Assembly: GCA_040752815.1 (NCBI GenBank)
Contig: JBFMGC010000005.1
Location: 46,389 to 110,388 of the forward strand
DNA: 64,000 nucleotides
Direction of reading: 5' to 3'
Source of the DNA: Candidatus Zixiibacteriota bacterium
Lineage (GTDB): Bacteria; Zixibacteria; MSB-5A5; GN15; FEB-12
The position numbers and the translations under genes are program-made. The first letter of the stretch is position 1. Each line of letters starts with the position of its first letter. The notes beneath the pieces were generated by a model. It was not told where the DNA came from, did not search any database, and saw nothing but the letters and a program-made list of their open reading frames with translations. Below are positions 4,755 through 64,000 of the stretch, piece by piece.

Positions 4755-6248
4755 TTACTGCCTCAGTATCTTCCGGGCGATAGCGCCATCCGGCTCCTGC
4801 ACAATGAGCGGGATTCGCGACCGGTCTTCCTCTTGTCTCACCGCGGAAAGAAATTCCTCCACCGAACTCACGGCGTTTTTCCCGATTTTCATAATGATCG
4901 AGCCGGCAGTTACGCCCGCTCGGTCGGCCGCCGTCCCCGGGTACACTCTCCAAACGTACAAACCGTCAACATGTTCCGCGCCAATATCTCGGGCGATTTC
5001 CGGTGTGTAGCGGCTCAATTCCATGCCGAGCAGGACCTCGGTCTCGGGGTGAGCACCCCCTCCAGGGTTTTCCAGCGACTGGGCCAGCCCGCTGTCGCGG
5101 TCGCCAATTGTCGTCTTCAGGTTAACGTGCTTGCCGTCGCGGACCACCTCGACAGGGATCGTATTCCCCTGCCTGAGCGTGGACACCAGCACCGAGAACT
5201 GACTGCCGTTTACAACTTCCTGATTATTGAACTTCACGACAACGTCACCCGGTTGAATTCCGGCCTGGTCGGCGGGCGATCCCACAAACACCGAGTCGAT
5301 CACCACCCCGCGTACGGCGTTTAGTCCGAGCCGCTTGGCCTGGCGCTCGTTGACATCCGACATCTGCACTCCCAGCCAGCCGCGACTCGGTTTGCCCGTA
5401 GCAATCAAATCTGGTACGATGGCGCGAGCCAGATTGATAGGGATGGCGAACCCGATACCGACCGAGGAACCGGTCGGGCTCGTGATGGCTGCATTGACCC
5501 CGATGCACTCACCGCGAAGGTTTAGAAGCGGGCCGCCCGAATTGCCCGGATTAATGGCGGCGTCGGTCTGAATGTAGTTCTGGTAGTACGGCGTGTCGCC
5601 GGTGAACCGGAGTTGGCTTCGACCTTTGGCCGAGACCACGCCGACCGTGACGGTCCTATCCAGACCCTGCTCGGGAAACGGGTTGCCGATCGCAATGGCC
5701 CAGTCGCCCACCTGGATCTCGTCGGAGTCACCAAACGGGATAACCGTAACCTTCTCTTCCGGCTCGACCCGAAGTACGGCCAGATCCGATTCCGGATCGT
5801 TGCCCACGAGCTGTGCCCGGTATTCGTAGCCCGACGATGTCCGGACCGTGATCTCCATGGCGTTGGCCACAACGTGATTGTTAGTCAGGACATAGCCGTC
5901 CTCGCGGAAGAAGAACCCGGAGCCGCGAGACATGGCATAGTGGCCGCCCCGGAGCCACCAGTGGGCCTGGTTGTCGCGGGTTGTGGCAGAGACATTGACC
6001 ACGGCGTCAGCCACCTGATTGACCACGTCAACGAACGGCGACTGCATGTGGCCGCCCTTGTCTACCACAGGGAACAGACCGGTCTGGCTGACGTTGGTCG
6101 GCACCTGGGCCACTGAGGGGGCTGACAGGTCCAGGTTAGACGCAATTAGAACGCCGAGGAGGGTGAAAAGGACGGCAGCCGAAACGATACCGGCCGTGCG
6201 GCGGCCGGAGAATTTCGGCTTCTGAGGAGGAACCGATTGGTTAATCAA
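4755..6248 (-). CDS. HtrA/DegP-type periplasmic serine protease
   Basis: This is a 497-residue Do-family protease that degrades or refolds damaged envelope proteins. An N-terminal membrane anchor (about residues 20-42) is followed by a trypsin-like domain with catalytic His125 (TNNHVV), Asp155 (ESDLAVL) and Ser237 (GNSGGP), then two PDZ domains (about 300-390 and 405-490). The frame is open upstream to 6437, but a near-perfect promoter at 6276-6304 puts transcription start near 6269. Translation must therefore begin at the TTG at 6248 (GGTGGG just upstream) or the GTG at 6257. It is followed on the same strand by rpoD. Confidence 0.92.
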   Translation of the reverse strand: MINQSVPPQKPKFSGRRTAGIVSAAVLFTLLGVLIASNLDLSAPSVAQVPTNVSQTGLFPVVDKGGHMQSPFVDVVNQVADAVVNVSATTRDNQAHWWLRGGHYAMSRGSGFFFREDGYVLTNNHVVANAMEITVRTSSGYEYRAQLVGNDPESDLAVLRVEPEEKVTVIPFGDSDEIQVGDWAIAIGNPFPEQGLDRTVTVGVVSAKGRSQLRFTGDTPYYQNYIQTDAAINPGNSGGPLLNLRGECIGVNAAITSPTGSSVGIGFAIPINLARAIVPDLIATGKPSRGWLGVQMSDVNERQAKRLGLNAVRGVVIDSVFVGSPADQAGIQPGDVVVKFNNQEVVNGSQFSVLVSTLRQGNTIPVEVVRDGKHVNLKTTIGDRDSGLAQSLENPGGGAHPETEVLLGMELSRYTPEIARDIGAEHVDGLYVWRVYPGTAADRAGVTAGSIIMKIGKNAVSSVEEFLSAVRQEEDRSRIPLIVQEPDGAIARKILRQ

Positions 6249-6275
6249 GAAGCCCACCAGAAAACTTAGCCTTAT

Positions 6276-6304
6276 AGTATACCCCTCACTCCGAGGCGTG
6301 TCAA
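6276..6304 (-). promoter_or_regulatory. Sigma-70 promoter of htrA (rpoD)
   Basis: On the minus strand TTGACA (6299-6304) and TATACT (6276-6281) are separated by exactly 17 bases. This is the full -35 consensus and a five-of-six -10 match. Transcription would start near 6269, leaving a leader of only 12-21 bases before the chosen start codon. Confidence 0.85.
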
Positions 6305-6533
6305 GCAAAACCTGATGCCTCGACGTGAGAACTTCCTTATTACTAATACGAACCTCATTCCTGACTTGATACCCGAATTCTAAGGGAAAGTTCTGCTCAT
6401 CGGGGGTTGTAAGTCTATGGTTTATCGCATCATACAATTGCGAGGCGGCCTGCTTCGCACGGCCGTATCGGGTTTACCCCAGTGTGGCGACCTTGTTGAC
6501 TTCCCCGCTGCTGCCCGCTACTTTGCCGCCGGA

Positions 6534-7184
6534 ATGGACTCAGCCCGGAAACAGCGGAAACAGCTTATCGAGGTCGGCAAGAGGCTGACTAAGATGCGGA
6601 TGGTGGCCGGGTCCGACGGCAACCTCTCCGCCCGCCTGGAGAACGGCCACATCCTGATCACTCCCTCGGGCGTGCCTCTCGGTGACCTAGATGCAGACGA
6701 TCTCGTGATGGTCGATCTGCACGGGACGAAACTTGATGGCGATGGCGAGCCGTCATCGGAACTCGCGACCCATTTGTACCTGTACAAGTCGCGTCCGGAC
6801 ATACAGGCCGTTGTCCACGCCCATCCGCCGTACGCCACCGCCTTTGCGGTCGCCGGAGTCGAAATGGAATGGCGGTCGCTGCCTGAGATGGTAGTGCTTG
6901 TCGGTCCGGTGGCATTGACTGAGTATGCCCCTCCCGGGACCGAGGCCGTTCCGAAAGCACTGGAACCGTTTTTCGCGAACCACGACGCCTTTCTATTGCG
7001 TAATCATGGGCTGGTGACAGTCGGGCGGTCGGTTATGATCGCATGGCAACGGCATGAGATTGTGGAGCACGCTGCCCGCATACTCCACCTGAGTCGAACG
7101 TTGGGCGGTCCCCAGCACATTCCTGGTTCCGATTTTGAGCGCCTCGAAAATCTGAGAAATACGTTGACGCGCGAACGGGACTGA
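6534..7184 (+). CDS. Class II aldolase/adducin family protein
   Basis: The protein has 216 residues and is related to L-fuculose-phosphate aldolase, ribulose-phosphate epimerase and MtnB. The family motifs are GNLSAR and ITPSG (phosphate site), the zinc ligands in VVHAHPPYATA, and the third histidine in RNHGLVTVG. It should be a cytosolic zinc enzyme acting on a phosphorylated sugar or thio-sugar; the substrate cannot be read from sequence. The ATG at 6534 fits the family N-terminus, although the frame is open to 6417. It is the first gene of a compact operon that continues into folate and pantothenate genes. Confidence 0.85.
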   Translation: MDSARKQRKQLIEVGKRLTKMRMVAGSDGNLSARLENGHILITPSGVPLGDLDADDLVMVDLHGTKLDGDGEPSSELATHLYLYKSRPDIQAVVHAHPPYATAFAVAGVEMEWRSLPEMVVLVGPVALTEYAPPGTEAVPKALEPFFANHDAFLLRNHGLVTVGRSVMIAWQRHEIVEHAARILHLSRTLGGPQHIPGSDFERLENLRNTLTRERD

Positions 7185-7200
7185 TACGCATGGAGACAAT

Positions 7201-8382
7201 GTGCCGGTCCGGAAAGTAGTTATCGATCGAGCCAATCGGCTCTACCAGATGCCGCCCGAGGTGGCGGACTTTGTCCCGTCGGGCCGCACACTGTTCGGGC
7301 TGGGACGCAGCGGCGTGATCGACCTGGCCTCGTTCCACTGGCCCATAGCGTTCGAACAAGATACCAAGCCCGCAGGCGACGAGCTGATGCCGGCAACAGA
7401 GCAGCAGTTGGCAGCACTTAGGGAGGAACTCGCAGTTTGGATAAATCGCACCCACGGCGCGCGAATCATCCCGGACAAAGAGATCTTCATTGGCGGGGGC
7501 ATCTCCAACCTTGCCTTTCAAATGGCGCTGGCCCATATCGACAGCGGCGATGCCGCGTTCGTTCCCTCCGTGGGCATCCCCCTTTACAGGGCTTGTGTGA
7601 CCGCGTGCAATGGTCAGCCGATCACTTATACAGTGTCGTCAAAAAACGACTGGTCGCCTCGATTCGACCGCCTCAATACCGTGCTGGGACGAGCCGCCCG
7701 TCTGCTGTTCCTCAATTCGCCGCACAACCCAACCGGCGTGGAACTGACCCACAAGGAAATCGCCGAGCTGGTCTGGACTGCCGGACGGCAGAACATCCTG
7801 ATTATCAATGATACCGCTTATGCGTCGCTTTCCAACCGACCGCATGCGTCGCTCCTATCAGTCACTGGCGGAAAGAAGGTCGGGGTCGAATTGGGATCGT
7901 TCGCCTATCAATTCGGGCTTCCGGCGCTGCCGTTCGGATATGCCGTGGGCAATCGCGAAGCGATATCCGGTTTGAAAAAGACCTCCCGCCTGGTTCACGC
8001 CTACCTGCCGTCCTATGCCGCTAATCTGGCAGTCGAGGCGATTCGGCAATATCCCTGCGATGCGCTAACGCGTGTGCGCGACCGGCTAACGCGCGCGTCA
8101 AGCGAGGCCTCGCAGCTAATGTCGCTGCTGCGGCTCGAACGCACGGTACAATCGTCGGTACCATTCGAATGGGCGCGTATCGAGAGACGAATGCCATCGA
8201 CCAACCTTGCCCGAACTTTGCTGCGCCGTTTTCGCATCGTGGTCGCACCGGGGCTTGCCTTCGGCGAGAACGGCGAGGGGTTTCTGCGATTCAGTCTGCT
8301 GGCCGGCTCTGAAGCGTTCGCCGAGGCGTGTCGCCGCGTGCGGCGAAGCCGCATCGCACGTAAGCGGGAGGACACAGAATGA
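7201..8382 (+). CDS. Aminotransferase class I/II fold protein lacking PLP lysine
   Basis: The protein has 393 residues and a fold-type I aminotransferase architecture. It keeps the PLP asparagine region (NSPHNPTG), the Asp/Tyr pair (NDTAY) and the carboxylate-binding arginine (FLRFSL). The place of the Schiff-base lysine reads GSFAYQFGLPALPFGYAVGN, where related enzymes have SFSK.....G.R.G, so Tyr236 stands for the lysine and proline for the arginine. A normal transaminase reaction is therefore unlikely; it may be a lyase-like, regulatory or binding protein. It begins with GTG 16 bases after the aldolase gene and overlaps folB by 4 bases. Confidence 0.75.
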   Translation: MPVRKVVIDRANRLYQMPPEVADFVPSGRTLFGLGRSGVIDLASFHWPIAFEQDTKPAGDELMPATEQQLAALREELAVWINRTHGARIIPDKEIFIGGGISNLAFQMALAHIDSGDAAFVPSVGIPLYRACVTACNGQPITYTVSSKNDWSPRFDRLNTVLGRAARLLFLNSPHNPTGVELTHKEIAELVWTAGRQNILIINDTAYASLSNRPHASLLSVTGGKKVGVELGSFAYQFGLPALPFGYAVGNREAISGLKKTSRLVHAYLPSYAANLAVEAIRQYPCDALTRVRDRLTRASSEASQLMSLLRLERTVQSSVPFEWARIERRMPSTNLARTLLRRFRIVVAPGLAFGENGEGFLRFSLLAGSEAFAEACRRVRRSRIARKREDTE

Positions 8383-9951: not shown

Positions 9952-10790
9952 ATATGTCTGTCGTCAGGAAGCGCGAGAAGATCACGACCCACACTATCGT
10001 GAGGATGAAAAAGCGGGGCGAGAAGATCGCCGTGCTGACCGCATATGATTACTTCACCGCACGGCTGCTCGATCAGGCCGGGGTCGATATCCTGCTGGTA
10101 GGCGATTCTGCCGCCAATGTCGTGCACGGTCACAAATCGACTTTGGCAATCGGCATGGACGTGATGGTCAGCCACACGGCGGCGGTGGCGCGCGGGCGGG
10201 AGAAGGCACTGGTGGTTGCCGACATGCCGTTTCTCTCGTTTCAGCCGTCGATTGAGACGGCCATAAGAAACGCCGGACGTTTCCTGGCCGAAGGAAGTGC
10301 CGAGGCGGTGAAAATCGAGGGCGGCCTCGAAATGGTGCCCACGGTGCGGCGGCTGATCGAATGCGGAATTCCTGTGATGGGGCATATCGGTTTGACCCCG
10401 CAGTCGATCAATCGCTTCGGCGGACCCAAAGTGCAGGGCAAAACCGACAAGTCAAGCAGTTACCTCATGGATTCGGCGTTGGCGCTCGAACAGGCAGGCT
10501 GCTTTTCTTGCGTACTGGAACTTACAACCAGGGAGACCGCGGCGGAGATTACCTCGGCACTGAAGACCATGGCGACGATCGGCATAGGCGCCGGGCCGCA
10601 TTGCGACGGCCAGGTGCTGGTAATCAACGACATCCTCGGACTGCGCGAACCCGGTTTCAAGCCGCGCTTCGTCCGCGAGTACGCCGACCTGCCGCCGATC
10701 ATCGCCGATGCCGCGCGACGGTTCGTAGATGACGTCCGCAATGGCCGATATCCGAATGACGAGGAATCCTTCTCCAAGGGTGAAAACTAG
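9948..10790 (+). CDS. panB: Ketopantoate hydroxymethyltransferase
   Basis: PanB transfers a hydroxymethyl group from methylene-tetrahydrofolate to alpha-ketoisovalerate, giving ketopantoate for pantothenate and CoA. The 280-residue protein shows VLTAYDYFTARLLD, the metal-binding VGDSA, VKIEGG, the GHIGLTPQ motif and the IGIGAGPHCDGQVLV segment. Its folate-linked chemistry fits its place after folB and folK. Either ATG (9948 or 9954) could start it. It is the last gene of the operon. Confidence 0.94.
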   Translation: MNMSVVRKREKITTHTIVRMKKRGEKIAVLTAYDYFTARLLDQAGVDILLVGDSAANVVHGHKSTLAIGMDVMVSHTAAVARGREKALVVADMPFLSFQPSIETAIRNAGRFLAEGSAEAVKIEGGLEMVPTVRRLIECGIPVMGHIGLTPQSINRFGGPKVQGKTDKSSSYLMDSALALEQAGCFSCVLELTTRETAAEITSALKTMATIGIGAGPHCDGQVLVINDILGLREPGFKPRFVREYADLPPIIADAARRFVDDVRNGRYPNDEESFSKGEN

Positions 10791-10952
10791 AGTTCTTCAG
10801 GCTGGGACTAGTGCCGCAACTTCTCTTGGCTTCTGACAACCTCCGGAGATCTGCCGCCCACGATCTAGGAGATATTAGTTGGGATGGTACCATTCTACAG
10901 ATAGTGCGGCCGTGATCGATTAGAGACAGTAGTCTCGGAAGGGAGTTTTGAT

Positions 10953-11855
10953 ATGTTCGCCAAAATAATCGGCATGTGCGCAGCAATGCTCGTGGTTGCG
11001 GGAACGGCCCTGGCGCAGAGTGACAGCGCCGCCGGCTGGAAGACCTCGCTGGTCACCGATCTGACTGTTACGCAAACATCGTACTCAGACTCGTGGGTCG
11101 GCGGCGAGGCCGGCTCGGTCAACTGGGTGTGGAATCTCGACGGCACCGCCGAGCGGCAGTTGAGTACCAAAGTGAACCTCAAGTCAACCCTGCGCCTGAA
11201 GTTCGGACAGACGCTGACACAGGACGCTGACACCAAAGACTGGGCCAAACCGAGAAAGTCCACCGATCTGATTGATTGGGAAAACGTCTTTCGGTTCACT
11301 CTGGGAAAAGTCGTGGATCCGTATGCGGCGGTCAGGTTGGAGAGCCAGTTCTTCGACGGCTCCGTGGCGGCCAAGAAGCTGTACCTGAGCCCGCTGAAAC
11401 TGACCGAGTCGTTCGGTGTGGCCCGCCAGTTCTACAAGAAGGAGAATGAGACCTTCACCAGTCGCATCGGTCTGGCCGCGCGCCAGATTTTCAAGACAAC
11501 AATCATCGATCTGGCGACACTCGAAACCGATGATTCGACTATTACCGACGGCGGTGTAGAATCGGTAACCGACGCTACCCTCAAGCTGGCGCAGAACATA
11601 CAGTATGTGGGCAAGCTGAGCATATTCAAGGCGCTGTTTTCATCGGAGTCGGACCGCGAGCATGTGCTGGGCGCGCGCGACGTCGGTGTCCACTGGTCGA
11701 CACCGGATGTCAATTGGGAAAACACGTTTACGGCTTCGGTGACGACAATTGTCAGCGTGAGCCTGTACACTCAGGTGCTCTACGACAAAGACATTGACAA
11801 ACGCGCCCGTTTCAAAGAGACCCTCGCGCTGGGCTTCACGGTGCGGATAACGTAA
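10953..11855 (+). CDS. DUF3078-like outer-membrane beta-barrel protein
   Basis: The 300-residue protein has a signal peptide ending in GTALA at about residue 21. The segment QTSYSDSWVGGEAGSVNWVW is the typical start of DUF3078 proteins of Bacteroidetes-like bacteria, followed by alternating amphipathic strands (LDGTAERQLSTKVNLKSTL and similar) expected of an outer-membrane barrel. Its function is unknown. The ATG has GGAAGGGAG 8 bases upstream. The C-terminus (GFTVRIT) lacks the common terminal phenylalanine. The next gene starts 8 bases after its stop. Confidence 0.72.
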   Translation: MFAKIIGMCAAMLVVAGTALAQSDSAAGWKTSLVTDLTVTQTSYSDSWVGGEAGSVNWVWNLDGTAERQLSTKVNLKSTLRLKFGQTLTQDADTKDWAKPRKSTDLIDWENVFRFTLGKVVDPYAAVRLESQFFDGSVAAKKLYLSPLKLTESFGVARQFYKKENETFTSRIGLAARQIFKTTIIDLATLETDDSTITDGGVESVTDATLKLAQNIQYVGKLSIFKALFSSESDREHVLGARDVGVHWSTPDVNWENTFTASVTTIVSVSLYTQVLYDKDIDKRARFKETLALGFTVRIT

Positions 11856-17814: not shown

Positions 17815-20409
17815 CTACAGGCAGTCGGGCAGGCCGAGCGAGAATCCCGTTATGAACAGATAATCGATCAGATTGGTGATATCGCCAATCGTAATATCGT
17901 CACAGGATGCAGCGCCTGGAGCCGATTGATTGATGTCCGCCTCCGGCAAACAGCCTATAACTCCCACACACGTCCCCGTGATGAACTTGGCATCGATAAG
18001 AGTCGTAACATCGCCGATTGTGGGCTCGTCCTCGCCGCTGCCGTTGGCATCGCCCACGTTGCCGACACAGCAACACGCATCGCCGACTCCGTTTCCGTCG
18101 AAGTCCTCCTGTCCGGCATTTGCCACCAGCGGGCAGTTGTCGGACACGTCCGCAACACCGTCGTTGTCGTCATCCGTATCGCAGGCATCCCCCTGGCCGT
18201 CGAGATCGGTATCGAGCTGGCTTGCATTCGCGGCCAGCGGGCAGTTGTCGGCGTCATCCGTAAACCCGTCGTTGTCGTCATCAGCGTCACAAGCGTCACC
18301 CTGGGGATCGCCGTCGTTGTTGGCCTGGCCGGGATTTACTACCAGCGGGCAATTGTCGGAACCGTCGGCGACTCCGTCGTTGTCGTCATCCGTATCGCAG
18401 ACATCGCCCTGGCCGTCGGTATCGGAATCGAGCTGATTGGCATTGGCCGCAAACGGACAGTTGTCGCCGGTATCAGGGACTCCATCATTGTCGTCGTCAG
18501 TGTCGCACGCGTCACCCTGAGAGTCGCCGTCGTTGTTGGCCTGGTTGCTGTTCGCGATCAGCGGACAATTGTCCGATGGGTCTTGAATCCCGTCACCGTC
18601 GTCATCCGGATCGCAGGCATTGCCCAGTGCATCGAGATCGGTGTTTAACTGATCAGGATTGGCCACGGTCGGGCAGTTATCGCATCCATCCGGTATCCCG
18701 TCGCCATCGGTGTGAGCGAAGTCGTTGAATCCCGGGCAGATATCGCATCCGTCTGGGGCGTTGTCGCCATCGGCATCGGCATTATCGTCGAATCCGGGGC
18801 ACAGGTCACACACGTTGCCGGAACCGTCGCCGTCGGCATCCTCCTGGCCGGCGTTTGCCTGCGCAGGGCAGTTGTCACAATCATCGGGGACACCGTCGTT
18901 GTCGGCATCCGAGGGCGATTGATCAGGATTATAGGTGTTAGGACAATTATCGCAAACGTCGCCAACACCGTCAGCATCCGCATCTTCCTGGCCGGGGTTG
19001 TTAATCTGGGAGCAGTTGTCGCTTCCGTTTGCCACCAGATCCCCGTCCACATCAGGGTCACACACGTCAGTAATGAGATCCCCGTCAAGATCATCAGCCG
19101 GACGGAATAAATAAGCCGCTCCGGCGTCATTACCTCCGGAATCCTCGAGCAGAGCGCCGACGATGACTTCAGCCCGACCATCACCGCTGGCGTCTCCCCC
19201 ACCGGCGACGGCGAACCCGAACCACTCCGTTGTATCCACACCGATAAACTCGAACAGCAGACTGCCCGTCTGGCCTGAGAAGATGCGGGCCAAACCCCGG
19301 TCGGCGACACCATCCTGGTTGTAACCGTAGCCACCGGCCAGGATGTCGTCGATTCCGTCACTGTTGACATCACCGGCCCTCGCCACCGAAACACCGAAAT
19401 AGTCCTGAACCCCAACGCCGTCGAACGTCCAGATGATCCCGCCGGTTTGTCCGGAGTACACATAGACCCGGCCTGCATCAGTAGCCGCAAAATCATGATT
19501 GCGCGCCCCCACGATCACGTCGTCATAGCCGTCGGCATTGATGTCACGAAGTCCCGCCACCGAGAAGCCGAATCCGTCAAACGTAGCCGCACCATTGAAT
19601 GTGTGCAACACCGTGGCGTCGGCGCCTGAGTATACGTACACCCGCCCGGTGCCTGCGTTATGGAAATAAGCGCCGACAATGAGATCGTCGAAGGTGTCGT
19701 TGTTGACATCGACCGCGCCCGAGACGGCGTTACCCAACTGCGAGGCCGTTGCCGGGCCGGTGAATGTCCATATCAACGATCCCGTCGGCCCGGAGTAAAC
19801 ATACGCCCGGCCGGCCGCCGTTCCGCCGGCGCTGTTGCCGGTGGCGCCTACTATAACGTCCGGGTTGGAGTCGCCGTTTACATCACCGGCGTACGCGACC
19901 GAAAACCCGAAATGATCATTGGCAGCTTGTCCGTTTAGGGAATACAGTAGCGTCCAGTTCTGCCCTGAATAGACGTACGCCCTTCCCGCGCCGGACGCGA
20001 CGGCATCGTTGTCCGGCGCTCCGATCAGCAGATCGTCATACCCGTCGCCATCGACATCGCCCGCGGTCGACACCGCCGCCCCGAATTTGTCCAAGGCAGC
20101 GGCTCCCAGCAGATGACGAAGTAATCGGCCGGTACGGCCTGAGTAAACGTAGACTTCACCGCTCTCGTTGTCGCCGGCAACCGGCGCACCGATTACGATG
20201 TCATCGTATCCGTCATTGTTGACATCGCCCGCAAATTGCACCGACGAACCGAAGTCCGCGAAGTTGTCTTCCCCGAAGAAGATGTACGTGGCGTAGTCAC
20301 AGGCTCCGTGGGCGCCCGACGGAACCGCTGCGGCCGCCAGGATCCCAACCAGCCCCAGAAGCCGGCTCCAACCGAAGCGCCCCGATCGCCGAAGTGCCGC
20401 TCGACACAT
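17815..20409 (-). CDS. Secreted FG-GAP / thrombospondin-3 / dockerin protein
   Basis: The 864-residue exported protein has a signal peptide (about 1-36, ending SGAHG). About seven FG-GAP repeats of integrin-alpha type (for example GDVNNDGYDDIVIGAP) follow to roughly residue 445. Next come about ten calcium-binding thrombospondin type 3 repeats (DNCP...N..Q.D.D.DG.GD.CD) to roughly 775. It ends in a dockerin-like tail (CCCVGNVGDANGSG, EPTIGDV, ITIGDITNLIDYLFI). It is likely a calcium-stabilised cell-surface or released protein. The ATG has AAAGGA 8 bases upstream. Two other genes in the window carry the same tail. Confidence 0.88.
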   Translation of the reverse strand: MCRAALRRSGRFGWSRLLGLVGILAAAAVPSGAHGACDYATYIFFGEDNFADFGSSVQFAGDVNNDGYDDIVIGAPVAGDNESGEVYVYSGRTGRLLRHLLGAAALDKFGAAVSTAGDVDGDGYDDLLIGAPDNDAVASGAGRAYVYSGQNWTLLYSLNGQAANDHFGFSVAYAGDVNGDSNPDVIVGATGNSAGGTAAGRAYVYSGPTGSLIWTFTGPATASQLGNAVSGAVDVNNDTFDDLIVGAYFHNAGTGRVYVYSGADATVLHTFNGAATFDGFGFSVAGLRDINADGYDDVIVGARNHDFAATDAGRVYVYSGQTGGIIWTFDGVGVQDYFGVSVARAGDVNSDGIDDILAGGYGYNQDGVADRGLARIFSGQTGSLLFEFIGVDTTEWFGFAVAGGGDASGDGRAEVIVGALLEDSGGNDAGAAYLFRPADDLDGDLITDVCDPDVDGDLVANGSDNCSQINNPGQEDADADGVGDVCDNCPNTYNPDQSPSDADNDGVPDDCDNCPAQANAGQEDADGDGSGNVCDLCPGFDDNADADGDNAPDGCDICPGFNDFAHTDGDGIPDGCDNCPTVANPDQLNTDLDALGNACDPDDDGDGIQDPSDNCPLIANSNQANNDGDSQGDACDTDDDNDGVPDTGDNCPFAANANQLDSDTDGQGDVCDTDDDNDGVADGSDNCPLVVNPGQANNDGDPQGDACDADDDNDGFTDDADNCPLAANASQLDTDLDGQGDACDTDDDNDGVADVSDNCPLVANAGQEDFDGNGVGDACCCVGNVGDANGSGEDEPTIGDVTTLIDAKFITGTCVGVIGCLPEADINQSAPGAASCDDITIGDITNLIDYLFITGFSLGLPDCL

Positions 20410-56523: not shown

Positions 56524-56970
56524 CGAAAACTGTAAGCGCAAAAGAGGTGCCTGTAATATAAGCATGGCGCCCGCTCGGCGCCAGAAGAATCCCCGCCCAA
56601 GGTCTTAGAAAACACATACTTACCGTCGCGGCCGAGGTACTTATCGGTGAGCCTCACTCACCCGCTCTCGGGAGGCGCAAGTCCATGCATATTCGGAGGC
56701 AGAATGGCTGCTCCAGGGGATGCGCAGATTCTGCTCCTGCCGTACTATTCACTTGCAAGGAGCAAAACACCGATATTGCTTGAAACCCATGCTAACCGAT
56801 TGCCGTACTTTATCATGGGACCATGTCGGGGAAGTTTCCGTCTGGTCCGCTGTAGAGCTTGTAAAGAGGCATCGTGTATGGCTATGTGTATCGATACGGC
56901 AACCGAACACCCGTGGGGCGAAGATTGAAAAAAGGTCGCCCCGGTCACTTTGTGGAGTAGGCAGGCAACT
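56524..56970. other. Divergent intergenic region
   Basis: No gene is supported in these 447 bases. The region lies between two divergent genes and must carry both promoters. No clear -35/-10 pair or repeat is seen. Confidence 0.45.
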
Positions 56971-58917
56971 TTGAGCTGTTGGCTAAGACAAATCATTCTA
57001 GCCGGCGTGGTCATCTCCTCGGCGGTAGCGACCGGCTGGTCGCAGGAGCGCACCCAGTCGCTCAAAGAACAACTGCAGAGCGAGCTGGACCGCCTATCCC
57101 GCGACGCTGCCGAGGAGTATCTTGACATACTCGAGAGTCTCCGCGATGTCTTGGACGACTACACCGACTACAAGCGTGAATCGCCCGACGACGCCGGGCA
57201 CAACCCCAGGGCAGTAGAAGTGCTGCGCCAGAATATCCGGAAGGGATCGTACGGAGATAACCCCGAGAAACTGCTTGATGACCTGAGCGAGGCCATAGCA
57301 GAAATAAAGATGACCGAGAGCGATCACCGGGTCAGGTTCAACACGAACAACCCGAACTGCTGCCGATTGGATCGCGGCCTGAGAAAAGAGCTGGTCATCA
57401 TCACCGAATTGGTCGAGGACTACCTGGACACCCAGCCGGGTGAGGTGCTTCGCTGGGACGAGATCAGCAGCTATGTTTCGAAGGCAATGAAGGCCCTGGC
57501 CGAATTGGAGAGCGCAAAGAAAAGTCACGGCGTCGAGGCCGAGGAGCTTCGCAAGGCGATCGACATGTTGCGCGCTCTGGGACTTGAGCGAAGAATAATC
57601 GTTGCCCCGGGGATGGCTCCTGAGGCCGAGCTGCCGGAGATGCACGACATACCGGAGATGCACGACATACCGGAGATGCACGACATACCGGAGATGCACG
57701 ACATACCGGAGATGCCCGAATTACCTGAAATGCCCGAGATCCCGGAGTTTCCGGCGCCGCGCTCGCGCGGAAGGTCATCAACCCGGCAAGGCGAGCGCCA
57801 CGTGCTTCACGGACAAGTGAACGTCACCAACACTTCGTGGCCGATAGTCGTTGAGAATCCATCGGGCGACATTGTCGTCAAAGGTGTTGACGGCAGGACC
57901 ATAATTGCGACTCTCTCGCTCGAAGTAGCGTCTACCTCCCGAGCGAAGGAAAAGGAGTATCTTGAGCGAACCGTTCTCGCCGTTGGGAAAGAGGCAAACC
58001 GGTACGCTGTGTCGGTAGATCTCCCTCGTCTTAGCGATCACCGCACCGAGTTGGTCGGCAGCACGCTCGAGGTGTCTGTCCCGCGCGGCAGCAAGATCGA
58101 TTGCTCGAGTGCCTTCGGCACCGTACTGGTGACTGAGATAAAGGCGCGCGTGACGGTAGATGCTGAGAATTCCACTGTCGAACTCCAGCGCCTAACCGGA
58201 GGGGCGGCCGTGCGCAGCTCGATGGGAGCGGTAACACTGACGGACGTTTCCGGTAACATGGACATAGAAACCTCTTACGCTCCGCTCAAGATGCTCCGCT
58301 GCAGCGGGACAATGCTTCTCGAAAACCAGTACAGCCCGATCTCGCTGGAGGACTGCCGGGGGGATGTCGAGATCAATAACACGAGCCTGGTCGAGATTTC
58401 GCATCACCAGGGCAATCTCACAGTCGAAAATCTCTATGGTCGGATCCAGATCGAGAAAGTCGAAGGTAACTTGTTTGTCAAGAATGGCTACCAGGCGATT
58501 GACGTAACCGATGTATCCGGCTCTGCCGAGCTGGAAAACCAGTACGCCGAGATCAGCGCCGACGGGATCAGGGGCAGCCTCTCAGTAACCAACAACTATG
58601 GCCCGATTTTTGTCGAGGCCCTGGCCGGTCCTCTGGAACTGAGCAACTACTACAGCAACAGCAGTATTTCCCTTGGTCGCGACTTCAGGGGCGGATCGAC
58701 TGTCTCCAGCACCGGCGGTACAGTCAAGGTGTCGTTTTTTGGGCAACCCAATCTAGTGCTCGCGGTGCATAGTGTCGGCGGCAGCATTTCGAGCAGCCTG
58801 CCGCTCTCGGTGAGATCGCAAGGCGAGTCAAAATCAGCCGAGCTGGTGCTGGGCGAGGGGGGCGAGACGTTCGAGATTTCCGGCACCGGCAGCGCTATTA
58901 TCGTGCAAGGGCGATAG
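56971..58917 (+). CDS. Exported DUF4097-type beta-helix protein
   Basis: The protein of about 648 residues has a signal peptide (about 1-25), an alpha-helical, acidic N-terminal region (30-215), a PEM..I linker repeat, and a long beta-helical C-terminal part of DUF4097 type. The last part has repeated 20-residue turns such as VEISHHQGNLTVENLYGRI. The TTG at 56971 with AGGCAGG upstream gives a normal signal peptide; the frame is open to 56950. Such proteins are exported and uncharacterised, often near envelope-stress regulators. Confidence 0.78.
   Translation: MSCWLRQIILAGVVISSAVATGWSQERTQSLKEQLQSELDRLSRDAAEEYLDILESLRDVLDDYTDYKRESPDDAGHNPRAVEVLRQNIRKGSYGDNPEKLLDDLSEAIAEIKMTESDHRVRFNTNNPNCCRLDRGLRKELVIITELVEDYLDTQPGEVLRWDEISSYVSKAMKALAELESAKKSHGVEAEELRKAIDMLRALGLERRIIVAPGMAPEAELPEMHDIPEMHDIPEMHDIPEMHDIPEMPELPEMPEIPEFPAPRSRGRSSTRQGERHVLHGQVNVTNTSWPIVVENPSGDIVVKGVDGRTIIATLSLEVASTSRAKEKEYLERTVLAVGKEANRYAVSVDLPRLSDHRTELVGSTLEVSVPRGSKIDCSSAFGTVLVTEIKARVTVDAENSTVELQRLTGGAAVRSSMGAVTLTDVSGNMDIETSYAPLKMLRCSGTMLLENQYSPISLEDCRGDVEINNTSLVEISHHQGNLTVENLYGRIQIEKVEGNLFVKNGYQAIDVTDVSGSAELENQYAEISADGIRGSLSVTNNYGPIFVEALAGPLELSNYYSNSSISLGRDFRGGSTVSSTGGTVKVSFFGQPNLVLAVHSVGGSISSSLPLSVRSQGESKSAELVLGEGGETFEISGTGSAIIVQGR
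57634..57741 (+). repeat. 18-base tandem repeat coding for PEMHDI
   Basis: Four perfect copies of an 18-base unit (CCGGAGATGCACGACATA) are followed by two diverged units, coding for PEMHDI four times, PEMPEL and PEMPEI. The near-identity of the four copies shows recent slippage or expansion within the linker of the DUF4097 protein. Confidence 0.9.
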
Positions 58918-58980: not shown

Positions 58981-59742
58981 TCAGTTGATATCGATGAGCT
59001 TTATGGGAAGCATGGCCAGGAGCAGCCAGCCTGCCCAGAGGCAACATACCACCACCGCCGCTCTGCGCTTCGAAATGCCCGTCACGATCGGCAGGGCGGT
59101 TACCATAAGTATCGCAATCCAGATGCTAAAGATATCCAATCGTTCCAATACAGTAATAAGCAGCGATCCCTCTGATTCTCCGCTGACAAACGCGGCCGGA
59201 CCTAGTTGAACGTCATAGCTTCCCTTTACGACCATGAGTGCGGCCACGATGATCTTCTCCGGAATCGTTACAAGGAAGATGAAACTCACAGCGGAGAACA
59301 ATTGCTTGAAAGACGCTCTTTCTCGCAGCGACAGTGTTGACAATAAGAGGATTGTCGACACTGCGATCACTTTCATCACGTTAATTCCAGTCAATATAGC
59401 CGCTCCCAGGGCCACCTTCGTGTACGATATTGAGGTCGTCCTCTGGGCATCTATGTTGTGCAGCCGACGCGACACTTCCTGGGGTGAGAGTGTTGAATCG
59501 TTCGAGATTCGCTCCTTTAGATCAGCCATACGGTATCGACTGGTGGCCGCCTCAAATCCTACCGCGACCAAAGAACAAAGTACAAGCGGAACAAGCCATC
59601 GCGGAGTCTTCGAAAGCTCCCTGAAAGCTCTAGAAGGCTCGAAGAACAGATATGCAATTATCTTCAAATAACCGTATGGCTTAGTAGCCGGCGTTTCAAC
59701 CGCCATTGCAGTCGATGCATTTCCCATTTCAGCATCTCCCAT
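58981..59742 (-). CDS. Yip1-domain membrane protein
   Basis: The 253-residue protein has five hydrophobic segments and the Yip1-family start YLFFEPSRAFRELSK..RWLVPLVL. The role in bacteria is unknown; Yip1 proteins are often next to ABC-2 transporters. Here it follows the permease gene with 4 bases between and is the last gene of the peptide-export locus. Confidence 0.75.
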   Translation of the reverse strand: MGDAEMGNASTAMAVETPATKPYGYLKIIAYLFFEPSRAFRELSKTPRWLVPLVLCSLVAVGFEAATSRYRMADLKERISNDSTLSPQEVSRRLHNIDAQRTTSISYTKVALGAAILTGINVMKVIAVSTILLLSTLSLRERASFKQLFSAVSFIFLVTIPEKIIVAALMVVKGSYDVQLGPAAFVSGESEGSLLITVLERLDIFSIWIAILMVTALPIVTGISKRRAAVVVCCLWAGWLLLAMLPIKLIDIN

Positions 59743-59746
59743 CCAA

Positions 59747-60550
59747 TTAGTAATGTGCGAGCGATCCGGCGCGACGCGCTTGATTGAATCCCATCCGAAC
59801 CGCCGTAAGTCCCAATGGCAATGTAACCAGAGATAGAATAAACAGAATTGTCAACTGTGGTGCAATTGTCGCTGTCGAAGCATTCTTGATAAGCGCGAGC
59901 CGCAACGCGTCCAAAGCGTAAGTAGTTGGCAACACGACCGAGATTGGTTTGAGGTAGCTCGGCAGATACTCCACCGGGAACAGCACGCCGGAAAACAAAC
60001 CGGTCAACGCTGTAAAGGCCCAGGAAATCGGATCGCCAACCTTGGTCACAATGATAATGCCCGCGCTCATCAGGCCGATTCCCGAGAGTGAGGTGACGGT
60101 CAGAAACATAGCAGCAATGGCTGCAGGCACGTTGATATCCATCGGGATGCCAAAAACAAGTACCACAATTGCCAACAACAAGGCCACGTTCACCAGGACT
60201 TGCAAGAAATTCATCAGTCCAGAATAGAGCAGTATCAACTCAAGGGGAGTATTGGACAAGAGTAAGAACTCAAGAGTGCCCATTTGCTGCTCAGAACGGA
60301 TAGTACCGGAAAACGAGCTGAGCGACACTCCCAGGAAGCTTGAGAAGGCCGTACCAATAATCAGGTAGGCCAAGAGATTCCCACCATAGGCGGCAAGGGC
60401 CGGAAAACTGTTGCCGTCGTTTAGGAATGTTCCCATAAATGTAAACTGCAGTAAACCAACAAAGCTGCCCACTATTCCCAGCACCAGCGCTGTCCTGTAG
60501 CTGAACAACGTTATGAGGCCGCGCTTGATAAACAAGAAAGCTCGATACAT
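59747..60550 (-). CDS. ABC-2 type transporter permease
   Basis: The 267-residue protein has six membrane helices and the ABC-2 family signature around GVLFPVEYLPSYLKPIS....P.TYALDALRLALI. It pairs with the ATPase encoded 4 bases upstream to export a substrate, here probably the modified peptides. The ATG at 60550 with GAGG upstream is chosen; a longer frame to 60616 overlaps the ATPase gene too far. Confidence 0.88.
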   Translation of the reverse strand: MYRAFLFIKRGLITLFSYRTALVLGIVGSFVGLLQFTFMGTFLNDGNSFPALAAYGGNLLAYLIIGTAFSSFLGVSLSSFSGTIRSEQQMGTLEFLLLSNTPLELILLYSGLMNFLQVLVNVALLLAIVVLVFGIPMDINVPAAIAAMFLTVTSLSGIGLMSAGIIIVTKVGDPISWAFTALTGLFSGVLFPVEYLPSYLKPISVVLPTTYALDALRLALIKNASTATIAPQLTILFILSLVTLPLGLTAVRMGFNQARRAGSLAHY

Positions 60551-60554
60551 CGCC

Positions 60555-61493
60555 TCACCCCGCCAGTTGAATGAACACGTCTTCAAGGGACGCGGTACAT
60601 GTATTGGCTCGTACAATCGCCAGACCTGAGTCCGTGACTTCTTTGAGCACGGCGCCCATATCGAACGAGCCGTTAGAGGTTATTACCAAGCGGGTGTCGG
60701 TCGCATCGATCGTGTGCAAATCGGACACTGATCTAATTCGTTCGGCCAGAGTATTCAAGCGATTTGCGGAAAAGTCAGAGGTACGGCAAAAGTCGATCTC
60801 AAAGCGCGTCTTCTTGCTCAAGCCCTGGAACTCCGCCAGGGTGCCGACCATCAAAAGCTTTCCCTCTTTGAGAAACCCAATCTGGTCAGACAGCCGCTCT
60901 GCCTCGGTCATATCGTGAGTTGTGAGAAGGATGGTTTTCCCCCGGTCCTTCTGTTCGGTCAGGATCTCTCTAATCGTGCGGGCAGAGGCGGGGTCGATGC
61001 CGCTATTTGGCTCATCGAGCAAAAGCACTGGCGGATCGTGCAGGAGTGCTCGTGCCAAAGCCAGGCGCTTTTTCATGCCGTTGGAGTAGCGCATGTATTG
61101 GAGTTTTGCGTCACCTTCCAAACCGACGAGCACCAGTAAACGTCCAATCCGCTCCGTCAGCGCGTGGCGCGGTATTCCGTATAGACCGCCGAAGAACTCC
61201 AGGTTTTGGGCGCCGGATAGTCGGTAATAGAAGCTCCGCTCTTCTCCCAGGACTAACCCTATACAGGCACGCGCTTGATATTCCCGTGTGCGCATGTCGT
61301 GATCACAGACTGTGACAGATCCAGCTTGAGGGACAATCAGACCGGAAACGATTCGAAGCAGCGTGGTCTTCCCCGCTCCATTCGGTCCAAGGAGCGTGAA
61401 GATGCAACCTGGCTCCGACATGAGAGACAGTTCATGTAAAGCTGGCCGCGTACTTTTGGCATACTGGTAGCTAATCTGATCCAGCGCAATCAT
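60555..61493 (-). CDS. ABC transporter ATP-binding protein
   Basis: The 312-residue protein has Walker A LGPNGAGKTT (36-43), the Q-loop region, a signature YSNGMKKR, Walker B VLLLDEPNSGIDP and the switch histidine in LTTHDM. It energises the adjacent ABC-2 permease. The signature has SNGMK in place of the common LSGGQ, as is frequent in this subfamily. Its start overlaps the stop of the CPBP gene (ATGA), and it ends 4 bases before the permease gene. Confidence 0.93.
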   Translation of the reverse strand: MIALDQISYQYAKSTRPALHELSLMSEPGCIFTLLGPNGAGKTTLLRIVSGLIVPQAGSVTVCDHDMRTREYQARACIGLVLGEERSFYYRLSGAQNLEFFGGLYGIPRHALTERIGRLLVLVGLEGDAKLQYMRYSNGMKKRLALARALLHDPPVLLLDEPNSGIDPASARTIREILTEQKDRGKTILLTTHDMTEAERLSDQIGFLKEGKLLMVGTLAEFQGLSKKTRFEIDFCRTSDFSANRLNTLAERIRSVSDLHTIDATDTRLVITSNGSFDMGAVLKEVTDSGLAIVRANTCTASLEDVFIQLAG

Positions 61494-62251
61494 GTGGGAC
61501 GGGCCTCACTGGTTCTTCTGGAACGCGCGAGCACATGCACCAAGACCGAAACTACGAAGTAGCCCACGACACCGACCACCCCACCGAGCATTCCCGCATT
61601 CGCAGTAACATGGCTGAAAATTGGAAACAGGAGAGAGCGTGTGTAATAGTAGATATAGCCAAGAGCAACGCCTGAAGTGAACAGACCCCAGATCTCAACA
61701 AGGCTCTTTGTCGGTATGTGCGCGGCCGCCCATAGCGCCGCGGCAGCGCACAGCAGGACGGCCACGGTCCATTTGGACCTCGGCCGCACCACAAACACAA
61801 TTGAGTTGATGAAGACGCCCCTGCAGACAATCTCTTCTAATGTTGCCCCACCTACCTTCCATGGCATTGAAGACTCGTACGACCAAATCGTACCTGGATA
61901 CCTGTGAATCAGGATCGCGCCAGTAATGACTATCAAGACTACGCTTATCCACAACTTCCGATCGATCACAAATCCCCATGCGACAAAGCTCGGCAAATCT
62001 CGCGACAATCCTACAAGACCTGCGGCGGCAAAGAAGATTGTCCAGGCCAGCAGGAATACCGCCAAAGTTAGCTCTACCAGTATTGGAGAAGTATGCATCA
62101 TGCCAGCACGCATGATGTTGGTGCACAGTCCGGTGGCGGCGTAAAGTATCGCCGCTGAAAGCAACAAATAACACCACCGGATCTGCGCGCTTGTATGAAT
62201 TCCACGATTCAAAGCTGTGTCTTCCCGCGAACGTCCTCGGCAGTCAAACAC
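61490..62251 (-). CDS. CPBP-family intramembrane protease in peptide locus
   Basis: The 253-residue protein has about seven hydrophobic segments. The CPBP motifs are ATLEEIVCRGVFIN (two glutamates and Arg), AAHIPTK (His) and SHVTANAG (His). In RiPP and bacteriocin loci such proteins remove leaders or give immunity. The GTG at 62251 keeps the frame whole; a TTG at 62212 is an alternative start. It follows the two precursor genes and is coupled to the ABC ATPase gene. Confidence 0.83.
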   Translation of the reverse strand: MFDCRGRSREDTALNRGIHTSAQIRWCYLLLSAAILYAATGLCTNIMRAGMMHTSPILVELTLAVFLLAWTIFFAAAGLVGLSRDLPSFVAWGFVIDRKLWISVVLIVITGAILIHRYPGTIWSYESSMPWKVGGATLEEIVCRGVFINSIVFVVRPRSKWTVAVLLCAAAALWAAAHIPTKSLVEIWGLFTSGVALGYIYYYTRSLLFPIFSHVTANAGMLGGVVGVVGYFVVSVLVHVLARSRRTSEARPT

Positions 62252-62349
62252 TGCCTGACGTCATCAAGGCTCATCGTCTGGACTGGCTGACCTCAAGGCA
62301 TCATTCACTTGAGGCAAGACTCTCAGAGGTTTTCCAGTTTTATTGGCAT

Positions 62350-62372
62350 CCAAGGCGCACATTGCGCCTTGG
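62350..62372 (-). promoter_or_regulatory. Hairpin between precursor genes and transport genes
   Basis: CCAAGGCGCA and TGCGCCTTGG pair perfectly around a 3-base loop, 10 bases after the stop of the second precursor. There is no T run. Such hairpins after precursor genes commonly protect the 3' end or reduce read-through, so that peptides are made in excess over export genes. Confidence 0.6.
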
Positions 62373-62382
62373 GTTGCGCTAA

Positions 62383-62535
62383 TCACGAGTCATAAATAAA
62401 GTAGAAACAGTAGTCACAATCAATGCCGCACCAACTGCTACAAAGTGCGGGACTACCAGTGCACCCGACCACAATGAACGGTATGCCACACCCAAAGCTC
62501 GATGTCGCCTGAGTAGGTTGTACTATCCATTTCAT
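62383..62535 (-). CDS. Cysteine-rich precursor peptide B
   Basis: This 50-residue peptide begins MKWIVQPTQATSSFG and carries cysteines at 16, 25, 32, 36, 40 and 43, with CDYCFYF near the end. GGAGGA lies 7 bases before the ATG. Start (M[NK]WI..P.TQ) and CDYC match the neighbouring precursor. I know no named family for it. Its short polar N-terminus and Cys/Gly/Ser-rich core next to a radical SAM gene, ABC exporter and protease mark it as a likely ribosomal peptide substrate. Confidence 0.75.
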   Translation of the reverse strand: MKWIVQPTQATSSFGCGIPFIVVGCTGSPALCSSWCGIDCDYCFYFIYDS

Positions 62536-62657
62536 GCGTAATTCCTCCGCTATGTCGCGTCTTGGCCCTCATCATATGCACAAGCCAGGGTTTTCTGTTG
62601 TGTTCCTTCGCACGATGCGTTAGACAAAACTGTGAATCCGAAGTGCTCGGCACGAGT

Positions 62658-62807
62658 TTAGTAAAGCACTACGCACTTGTTGCCATAACAGTAGTCACAA
62701 GGGTCGGCGTCAGCGAAACAGGAGTCGCTACAACAGAACACAAACGTGCATATTTTCATATATATGACGCCATCGAACTGCGTACTTGGTTCAGCGATCC
62801 AATTCAC
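62658..62807 (-). CDS. Cysteine-rich precursor peptide A
   Basis: This 49-residue peptide starts at GTG 62807, five bases after a near-perfect AAAGGAGGT. It begins MNWIAEPSTQFDG, then has seven cysteines (20, 25, 26, 30, 37, 40, 45) with CDYCYGNKC at the end. It shares the M[NK]WI..P start and CDYC with peptide B, so both are related and probably modified by the same enzyme. The frame is open upstream to 62858 but the strong ribosome site decides the start. Confidence 0.78.
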   Translation of the reverse strand: MNWIAEPSTQFDGVIYMKICTFVFCCSDSCFADADPCDYCYGNKCVVLY

Positions 62808-62886
62808 AATCCACCTCCTTTCACACAAAACGGTTCTGGTTATATCATCCAACTCCACGGCTCAAATTAGCCTGCCTCCATAGTGC

Positions 62887-63940
62887 TCAATTCGACACAT
62901 AGCCCGTATCTGGATTCGAAGGATCGGGCGCGGGGGAAGAGATGTTCACTTGTCCACGAACTGGTGACAGTAATCCGCGCCCTTGTGCCTCCTTCATCAC
63001 CATCAACATCGGTTTGAGGTTGTGTGCCCACCAAACACAAGTAGTGCCCTGCGGATCAGTCAGCTCCTGAGAGTGAATTGTCCTGTATGGGCACCCGCCC
63101 AAGCATAAGGGTAGCACTTCACATACCAATCCGAAATCCGTGAGCCAGAGCGGTGCGATATGCACCGACCATCCAGAAAGAGAACTCCTGGCTCGCCATG
63201 CATTGAGACGCTATATCAGGACAGGAATTCGAGTAGTGCACAGTCTGCCCGAAGTATAGGCGAATATTAGGTTTCGAATGCAAGCCATGGCCCCTGAGAA
63301 TGGAAAGCAACTCCGGAACATCCTCTGCGTTCCGCCGGTCTATGTTCACTCTGATGGACACTGCCGGTTTGCCTTTTTCTCCCATATAGCAGATATTGTC
63401 GAGTATTCGATCGAATGTTTCTCCTCCACCTCTCAGTGGTCTTCTCCTATCATGAACGTGCTTTGGCCCGTCTATGGTGATTTGGACGAACTTCACCTGA
63501 TTCTGCGCCAGGAACTCAACATTGTCTGGGGTCAGCAGGTAGCCAATCGTAATCATGCCACTGTGGTAGACGCTTTTCTTTGACTCGCAGATTCGCACAA
63601 ATCCAGTCGTTAAAGACTGGATTACATCCCTCGAAAGCAGAGGTTCTCCGCCGTACCACATGGCAAAGAATGCGGCGTTTTGCGGGATTTCCTTTTCGCA
63701 CAGATACAACAAGTGCTCTTGAACGCTCTTGGACATGTCGCTGTCCTGATCCACCGCCATGCAATGTATGTCCTTACTTTCGTAGCAATAGTCGCAGGCA
63801 AAGTTGCACCTGCAGGTGGGCACGATTGTCAAACCGAATCCCTGATGGCCAAACCGTGCCTGGTAGTGGGAGGCCCTGATGGCGTCCAATTCGTCCAGTT
63901 CGGCGGGTGTGACAAACCCACCCTCTTGCAGGTTAACCAC
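62887..63940 (-). pseudogene. Radical SAM/SPASM peptide maturase, frameshifted and shortened
   Basis: The N-terminal part (63940 to 63119, 273 codons) has the radical SAM cluster motif CNFACDYC (45-52), WYGGEPLL and the TIDGPKHVHDRRRP region. It ends at a TGA just after GFRIG. Another frame then gives CEVLPLCLGGCPYR and TTCVWWAHNLKPML, the C-x5-C-x3-C and last Cys of a SPASM domain, to the stop at 62887. The middle of the SPASM domain is missing, so a deletion with frameshift lies near 63120-63165. This is either real decay or an assembly error. It would modify the two peptides encoded next to it. Confidence 0.75.
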
Positions 63941-64000
63941 AAAATCGTCCTGTCCGTCGCCGTTGATTTCGCCCCGTGCGACTACATCGCATTATCGTTG

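What the first reader, a model, noticed from the sequence alone, without database searches (positions are those of the whole stretch)
58981..63940. Undescribed RiPP-like locus: radical SAM maturase, two Cys-rich precursors, CPBP protease, ABC exporter, Yip1
On the minus strand the genes run maturase, precursor A, precursor B, hairpin, CPBP protease, ABC ATPase, ABC-2 permease, Yip1, with overlaps or tiny gaps in the last four. Modifying enzyme, substrates, protease and exporter in one run is the established layout of ribosomally made, modified peptides. I cannot match the precursors to a named class.
Basis: partly seen in the sequence, partly recalled or inferred. Interest (0 to 1): 0.95.

Follow-up and report, generated by a model that had tools for sequence, protein, structure and literature searches.

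The report
Cysteine-rich peptide operon with broken maturase
This uncultured Zixibacteria bacterium carries an operon for two small cysteine-rich peptides that a radical enzyme would cross-link; sister species have the same operon intact, but here the enzyme gene is disabled, so this copy probably no longer makes the finished product and may mainly keep the protective transporter genes.

Summary
The locus is real, and the RiPP reading is right for the locus family. However, the maturase in this window is a damaged gene. Its true ATG lies 117 bases beyond the window end. It carries an in-frame TAA (63994-63992) inside the leader-binding (RRE) domain. At about 63123 it has a frameshifting deletion of ~68 codons that removes three conserved SPASM cysteines. 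Precursors A and B are genuine: a profile built without them ranks them first and second of 1664 six-frame ORFs in the window. Paired homologues, with an intact maturase and the same CPBP-ABC-permease-Yip1 cassette, occur in two other Zixibacteria families (G048, G097). The maturase+precursor unit also occurs without the cassette (G056, G039), and the cassette without maturase or precursors (G096). That modularity, with retention of the cassette beside a dead maturase, favours a self-protection role at least as much as export. The closest functional analogue is the Bacillus SKF operon. The closest sequence families are Clo7bot, TIGR04463 and CefB, and every membership cut-off is missed. Verdict: a new subfamily of radical-SAM cysteine-rich RiPP, present here as a recently broken copy.

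The parts
63992..64000 (-). N-terminal (RRE) part of the maturase gene, ending in an in-frame TAA at 63994-63992; its ATG lies outside the window (equivalent to window position 64117)
   Evidence: Contig sequence beyond the window and tblastn of three intact homologues through the stop codon; the TAA stands where G048 has a Tyr codon
63119..63991 (-).
   Evidence: PF04055 E 4.5e-16; 57% identical to the intact G048 maturase; one clade with the intact homologues, 100/98 support
62887..63123 (-). Remnant of the SPASM tail in another reading frame, after a deletion of about 68 codons
   Evidence: tblastn: G048 residues 401-451 align here on bases adjacent to residue 332
62658..62807 (-). Precursor A, 49 aa, 7 Cys: MNWIAEPSTQFDGVIYMKICTFVFCCSDSCFADADPCDYCYGNKCVVLY (GTG start)
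   Evidence: Profile built without window sequences: E 1.5e-5, rank 1 of 1664 ORFs; A-type homologues in G048 and G097
62383..62535 (-). Precursor B, 50 aa, 6 Cys: MKWIVQPTQATSSFGCGIPFIVVGCTGSPALCSSWCGIDCDYCFYFIYDS
   Evidence: Same profile: E 1.6e-4, rank 2 of 1664; B-type homologues in G048 and G097
62350..62372 (-). Hairpin CCAAGGCGCA-ATG-TGCGCCTTGG after precursor B; no T-run
   Evidence: z -4.0; a weaker stem in G048, none in G097, G056 or G039, so not a conserved part
61490..62251 (-). CPBP (Rce1-like) intramembrane protease; start codon uncertain
   Evidence: PF02517 E 1.1e-12; EEIVCR and AHIPTK motifs present
60555..61493 (-). ABC transporter ATPase, DrrA-like
   Evidence: PF00005 E 1.1e-25; 50-55% identical in G048, G042, G096 and G097
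59747..60550 (-). ABC-2 permease, 267 aa
   Evidence: PF01061 E 5.4e-11; 67-73% identical in seven other Zixibacteria genomes
58981..59742 (-). Yip1 / YknW-like membrane protein
   Evidence: PF04893 E 4.3e-15; NF052650 YknW_fam 63 bits against a cut-off of 110

Best explanation
The locus is a recently broken copy of a conserved Zixibacteria operon for a two-peptide, cysteine-rich RiPP. In intact relatives the maturase's N-terminal RRE would bind the shared leader start M-x-W-[IL]-[VA]-x-P, and its radical SAM core with SPASM clusters would build thioether-type cross-links from core cysteines (inferred from the family; the chemistry is not shown). CPBP, the ABC pair and Yip1 act at the membrane; self-protection, as described for SkfEF and EpeAB, is the more likely role, with export or leader removal second (both inferred). 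In this genome the maturase has lost its function through a nonsense codon and a frameshifting SPASM deletion (shown in the assembly), so the peptides, if made, are probably unmodified while the cassette is kept.
For: Two lesions in the maturase, seen by reading frames and by tblastn of three intact homologues; no intact copy of this clade elsewhere in the genome. Intact operons with the same layout and paired A/B precursors in G048 and G097. Held-out profile finds both window precursors as top hits. Precursor matches only in genomes with this maturase (profile trained on them). One maturase clade, 100/98. Model of an intact homologue matches RRE-rSAM-SPASM enzymes CteB and TigE. Cassette without maturase and precursors in G096. 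SKF: precursor, rSAM, putative protease and ABC pair, the latter described as export/resistance or autoimmunity.
Against: No read data: an assembly error is not excluded, and the remaining maturase residues show no raised divergence. The immunity role rests on gene distribution and analogy only. The precursor cores vary strongly, and G039's has only 3 Cys. The G048 maturase itself lacks one SPASM Cys.
Confidence: 0.72

Rival explanations
1. The operon is functional: the TAA and the deletion are assembly errors of this metagenome-derived sequence, and the maturase is intact in the organism.
For: The rest of the gene is as conserved as in intact homologues: 8 of 96 otherwise invariant columns differ, against 5.4-15.4% in the others. 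The gene lies close to a contig end.
Against: Two independent lesions of different kinds are needed, a point nonsense codon and a deletion of about 68 codons with a frameshift. The missing SPASM part of this gene was not found elsewhere in the genome.
Confidence: 0.13
2. The peptides are modified in trans by a paralogous maturase of the same genome (C58 or C104), whose own precursors start with a similar leader (MIFLIEP, MIFLIDP at C58).
For: C58 has an intact 451-aa maturase with two precursors that share the M-x-[WF]-[IL]-x-x-P start.
Against: The paralogues are only 36-38% identical to the broken maturase and the core peptides are unlike (KPLYG-type ends).
Confidence: 0.08
3. The CPBP-ABC-Yip1 cassette is an unrelated envelope-stress or efflux operon that merely lies next to a decayed RiPP unit.
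For: The ATPase is DrrA-like. The cassette occurs alone in G096 and the ABC pair alone in G053; G056 and G039 have maturase and precursor without it.
Against: Adjacency to the same maturase and precursor pair in three genomes of three families; co-occurrence alone P = 0.003. The G040 ABC pair stands near another radical SAM maturase with tandem peptides.
Confidence: 0.12
4. The ABC pair is the dedicated exporter and CPBP removes the leader.
For: Layout of RiPP operons with peptidase and ABC genes (PMC6231123 figure legend); PMC8172795 names SkfE/SkfF for export/resistance.
Against: Presence of the cassette without substrate in G096. The ABC-2/DrrB permease type carries no peptidase domain. The extra CPBP-like copies in G048 and G042 have lost catalytic residues, odd for a processing enzyme.
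Confidence: 0.35

Closest known systems
SKF operon skfABCEFGH of Bacillus subtilis (and epeXEPAB)
   Same: Small precursor, rSAM maturase with RRE, membrane protease, ABC ATPase and permease in one operon; ABC pair described as autoimmunity or export/resistance (PMC13343845, PMC8172795)
   Different: SkfB matches only in the radical SAM core (E 4.5e-4) and has a Twitch domain, not SPASM (PMC6231123); two precursors here; Yip1 here, no SkfG/SkfH counterpart seen; different precursor sequence
Clo7bot peptides and maturase (TIGR04333/TIGR04334)
   Same: Second-best or best maturase match over full length (334-338 bits for intact homologues); Cys-rich short peptides; weak match of the leader of G048 B (E 0.23)
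   Different: Maturase cut-off is 600 bits, peptide cut-off 31 bits (11.3 reached); not met
TIGR04463 'rSAM_vs_C_rich' maturase and CefA/CefB (Cys-every-fifth)
   Same: Maturase 341 and 240 bits for G048; G056 precursor touches CefA at E 0.055
   Different: Cut-offs 525 and 600 bits not met; the window precursors show no Cys-every-fifth spacing
CteB/thermocellin and TigE (solved RRE-rSAM-SPASM maturases)
   Same: Best structural matches of a modelled intact homologue (5why/5wgg E 3.5e-17 to 2.3e-15; 8vpo TigE E 3.8e-15)
   Different: 17-19% identity; different precursors; chemistry cannot be transferred

Membership tests
RiPP biosynthetic locus (radical SAM type) | Small precursor genes conserved as protein next to a peptide maturase | tested here: met
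RiPP biosynthetic locus (radical SAM type) | Intact maturase in this genome | tested here: not met
   TAA plus frameshifting deletion; intact in G048, G056, G097, G039
RiPP biosynthetic locus (radical SAM type) | Chemical modification of the core peptide | not testable with these tools
   Needs co-expression and mass spectrometry
SPASM radical SAM peptide maturase (RRE + rSAM + 7-Cys SPASM) | CxxxCxxC and complete SPASM cysteines | tested here: not met
   Core motif present; three SPASM Cys deleted and the rest out of frame in the window; intact homologues have them (G048 lacks one)
Clo7bot (TIGR04333/TIGR04334) | Score above curated cut-off | tested here: not met
   Maturase 334-338 of 600 bits, precursor 11.3 of 31 bits
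TIGR04463 C-rich maturase | Score above curated cut-off | tested here: not met
   334-341 of 525 bits
CefA/CefB Cys-every-fifth | Score above curated cut-off | tested here: not met
   233-240 of 600 bits; precursor of G056 13.4 of 30 bits
SKF-type sactipeptide operon | Gene layout precursor, rSAM, protease, ABC pair | tested here: met
   Window, G048 and G097
SKF-type sactipeptide operon | SkfB-type maturase and SkfA-like precursor | tested here: not met
   SkfB 6efn only E 4.5e-4 over the rSAM core; SkfB has a Twitch domain. SkfA itself was not aligned
Ranthipeptide / sactipeptide | Thioether position (alpha, beta or gamma carbon) | not testable with these tools
   Chemistry unknown
CPBP intramembrane protease | EExxxR and the conserved His | tested here: met
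   Present in the window, G048 copy 1, G042 copy 2, G096 and G097; degraded in the extra copies of G048 and G042

The most novel reading that the evidence does not exclude
A new two-peptide, cysteine-rich RiPP class of uncultured Zixibacteria, with paired A and B precursors modified by one maturase and neutralised by a separable CPBP-ABC-Yip1 immunity cassette; the window shows a producer that has turned into an immune non-producer by losing its maturase.
Probability: 0.35. Interest if true: 0.62.

Novelty: new variant of a known kind. Interest (0 to 1): 0.45.

Why it matters
It defines an unnamed maturase-precursor clade with paired peptides in a phylum from which no RiPP work was found in the library searched. 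Intact versions in G048 and G097 can be expressed directly. The modular occurrence of the cassette makes 'immunity or export?' a testable question. The broken maturase corrects the window's annotation and warns against expressing this copy.

Tried and rejected
Pfam, NCBIfam and PADLOC with the locus genes: only generic families, no defence system. Rfam: nothing. Conserved RNA hairpin: present in the window and weakly in G048, not in G097, G056 or G039, so not a defining part. Weak own-genome hits to precursor B at C27, C62 and C73 (E 0.03 or worse): the C27 place was looked at and showed no maturase neighbourhood; treated as chance. Thiothrix, gammaproteobacterial and planctomycete relatives: a neighbouring maturase clade (94/79 support) with other peptides and no such cassette in the stretches read. 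The idea that the maturase fragment evolves faster than its homologues: not supported. A Cys-rich reading frame at the contig edge of G042 (L087 1-159), perhaps a cut precursor: not recognised by the profile, so not counted. Papers on Clo7bot, TIGR04463 and Zixibacteria RiPPs: no relevant hits in this library.

Full report
Place. The window is G000:C5:46389-110388 of a 3.19-Mb, 136-contig genome; contig C5 ends 610 bases beyond the window. One genome of the same order (G040) carries the permease hit at the same contig position, with the same scores, as the genome holding locus L091, a named Candidatus Zixiibacteriota record. The host is therefore a member of the Zixibacteria (inference).

Observation. 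Precursor A (62807-62658) and precursor B (62535-62383) begin MNWIAEP and MKWIVQP and hold 7 and 6 cysteines. The pattern M-x-W-[ILV]-[AV]-x-P with at least five Cys finds exactly these two in the window and none in 200 simulated windows. The hairpin after B is real.

The maturase is broken. Reading past the window end, the gene starts MAEKVKASYYNHLVPLENGNWLAFNALRCGLAEMDPQSYQR and meets a TAA (63994-63992). The frame then continues to 63119, while the SPASM tail CEVLPLCLGGCPYRT... follows in another frame. tblastn of three intact homologues aligns residues 2-332 straight through the stop codon and residues 401-451 in the second frame on adjacent bases. About 68 residues, with the first three SPASM cysteines (C341, C360 and C398 in G048 numbering), are missing, and the piece left has a shifted frame. 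No other intact maturase of this clade is in the genome; the two paralogues are 36-38% identical. The remaining residues are not unusually divergent, so the loss is recent, or, less likely, an assembly error that made two independent lesions.

The family is real. Among 133 genomes of the phylum, six hold this maturase clade: G048, G056, G097, G039, G000 and G002 (G002 is cut by a contig end). The five that could be placed in a tree form one clade with 100/98 support. Directly behind the maturase stand precursors: a pair in G048 (L041 1541-1696 and 1718-1861) and in G097 (L100 7062-7205 and 7280-7420), single ones in G056 and G039. A-type peptides share CCS, B-type peptides share C-D-[YF]-C...Y near the end. 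A profile made without the window sequences ranks precursors A and B first and second of 1664 six-frame ORFs (E 1.5e-5 and 1.6e-4). A profile of all eight peptides finds convincing matches in no other genome (the profile was built on those it finds).

The cassette. The permease is the most conserved gene (69-73% in G048, G042 and G097; 67% in the more distant of the close relatives), the ATPase 50-55%, Yip1 32-37%, CPBP 23-43%. Complete operons are found in G000 (with the broken maturase), G048 and G097. G048 has two extra, catalytically degraded CPBP-like genes, and G042 one. G032 and G042 have the cassette at contig ends. G096 has CPBP, ABC, permease and Yip1 with an oxidoreductase gene upstream and no maturase or precursor of this type. 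G053 has the ABC pair alone. G040 has the ABC pair near a different radical SAM maturase with tandem CCC peptides. G056 and G039 have maturase and precursor without an adjacent cassette. Co-occurrence of permease and maturase in three genomes has P = 0.003, and in all three they are neighbours.

Mechanism. Shown: gene content, conservation, lesions in the assembly, co-localisation. A model of the G056 maturase (mean pLDDT 74.7) matches the RRE-rSAM-SPASM enzymes CteB and TigE over its whole length, with an N-terminal region of strands followed by helices as in an RRE (RRE definition in PMC6231123). Inferred: the RRE binds the MxW[IL]VxP leader and the enzyme cross-links core cysteines. Inferred: the cassette gives self-protection. 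The reasons are its existence without substrate, its retention beside a dead maturase, and the analogous SKF and EPE operons, in which the ABC pair is described as autoimmunity (PMC13343845; PMC8172795 writes export/resistance). Export with leader removal stays possible.

Known or new. By sequence the maturase lies near TIGR04334 (Clo7bot), TIGR04463 and CefB but misses each cut-off by a wide margin; the precursors match none. By function it works like an SKF/EPE-type operon but is not a member by the features tested. It is best filed as a new variant of radical-SAM, cysteine-rich RiPP loci. This copy is a recently broken one.

Noticed in passing
Own genome C58 (L006 4757-4870, 5102-5215) and L045, L046, L050, L016, L018, L020-L025, L029, L104: A second, much more widespread peptide family in the same phylum, M-[IVD]-[YF]-L-[IV]-[DE]-P...C...C...[KI]-P-[LC]-Y-G-[IV]-, in 1-3 copies upstream of a maturase, a second radical SAM gene, often a third B12-like one and an ABC exporter; three members tested match nothing in NCBIfam.
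   Followed up: partly
L089 (G040:C124) 6099-7710, minus strand: At least six tandem 39-40-aa peptides M[EQ]-F-[IL]-x-[NQT]-P-[FL]-L...C...LGCCC..LT behind a 494-aa radical SAM/SPASM maturase, with a TraB-like gene and the same ABC pair downstream.
   Followed up: no
L103 (G107:C1) 10697-10828 and 11073-11216: Two peptides M-R-W-L-[HY]-[NR]-P-D-P...CTQY.PC.CYC.PKL.KLMI directly behind a more distant (49%) member of the ABC pair: perhaps another branch of the same precursor type.
   Followed up: no
L041 2919-3641 and 3683-4447: Two CPBP-like genes that have lost the first Glu of EExxxR (one also the His), in a row with an intact CPBP: possible immunity-type pseudoenzymes.
   Followed up: partly
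window 57634-57747: 18-base repeat, 6.3 copies, giving a PEMHDI repeat in a 655-aa plus-strand ORF (56950-58917) next to the operon.
   Followed up: no
window 18108-18641: 108/216-base tandem repeat array, 2 to 3.3 copies.
   Followed up: no
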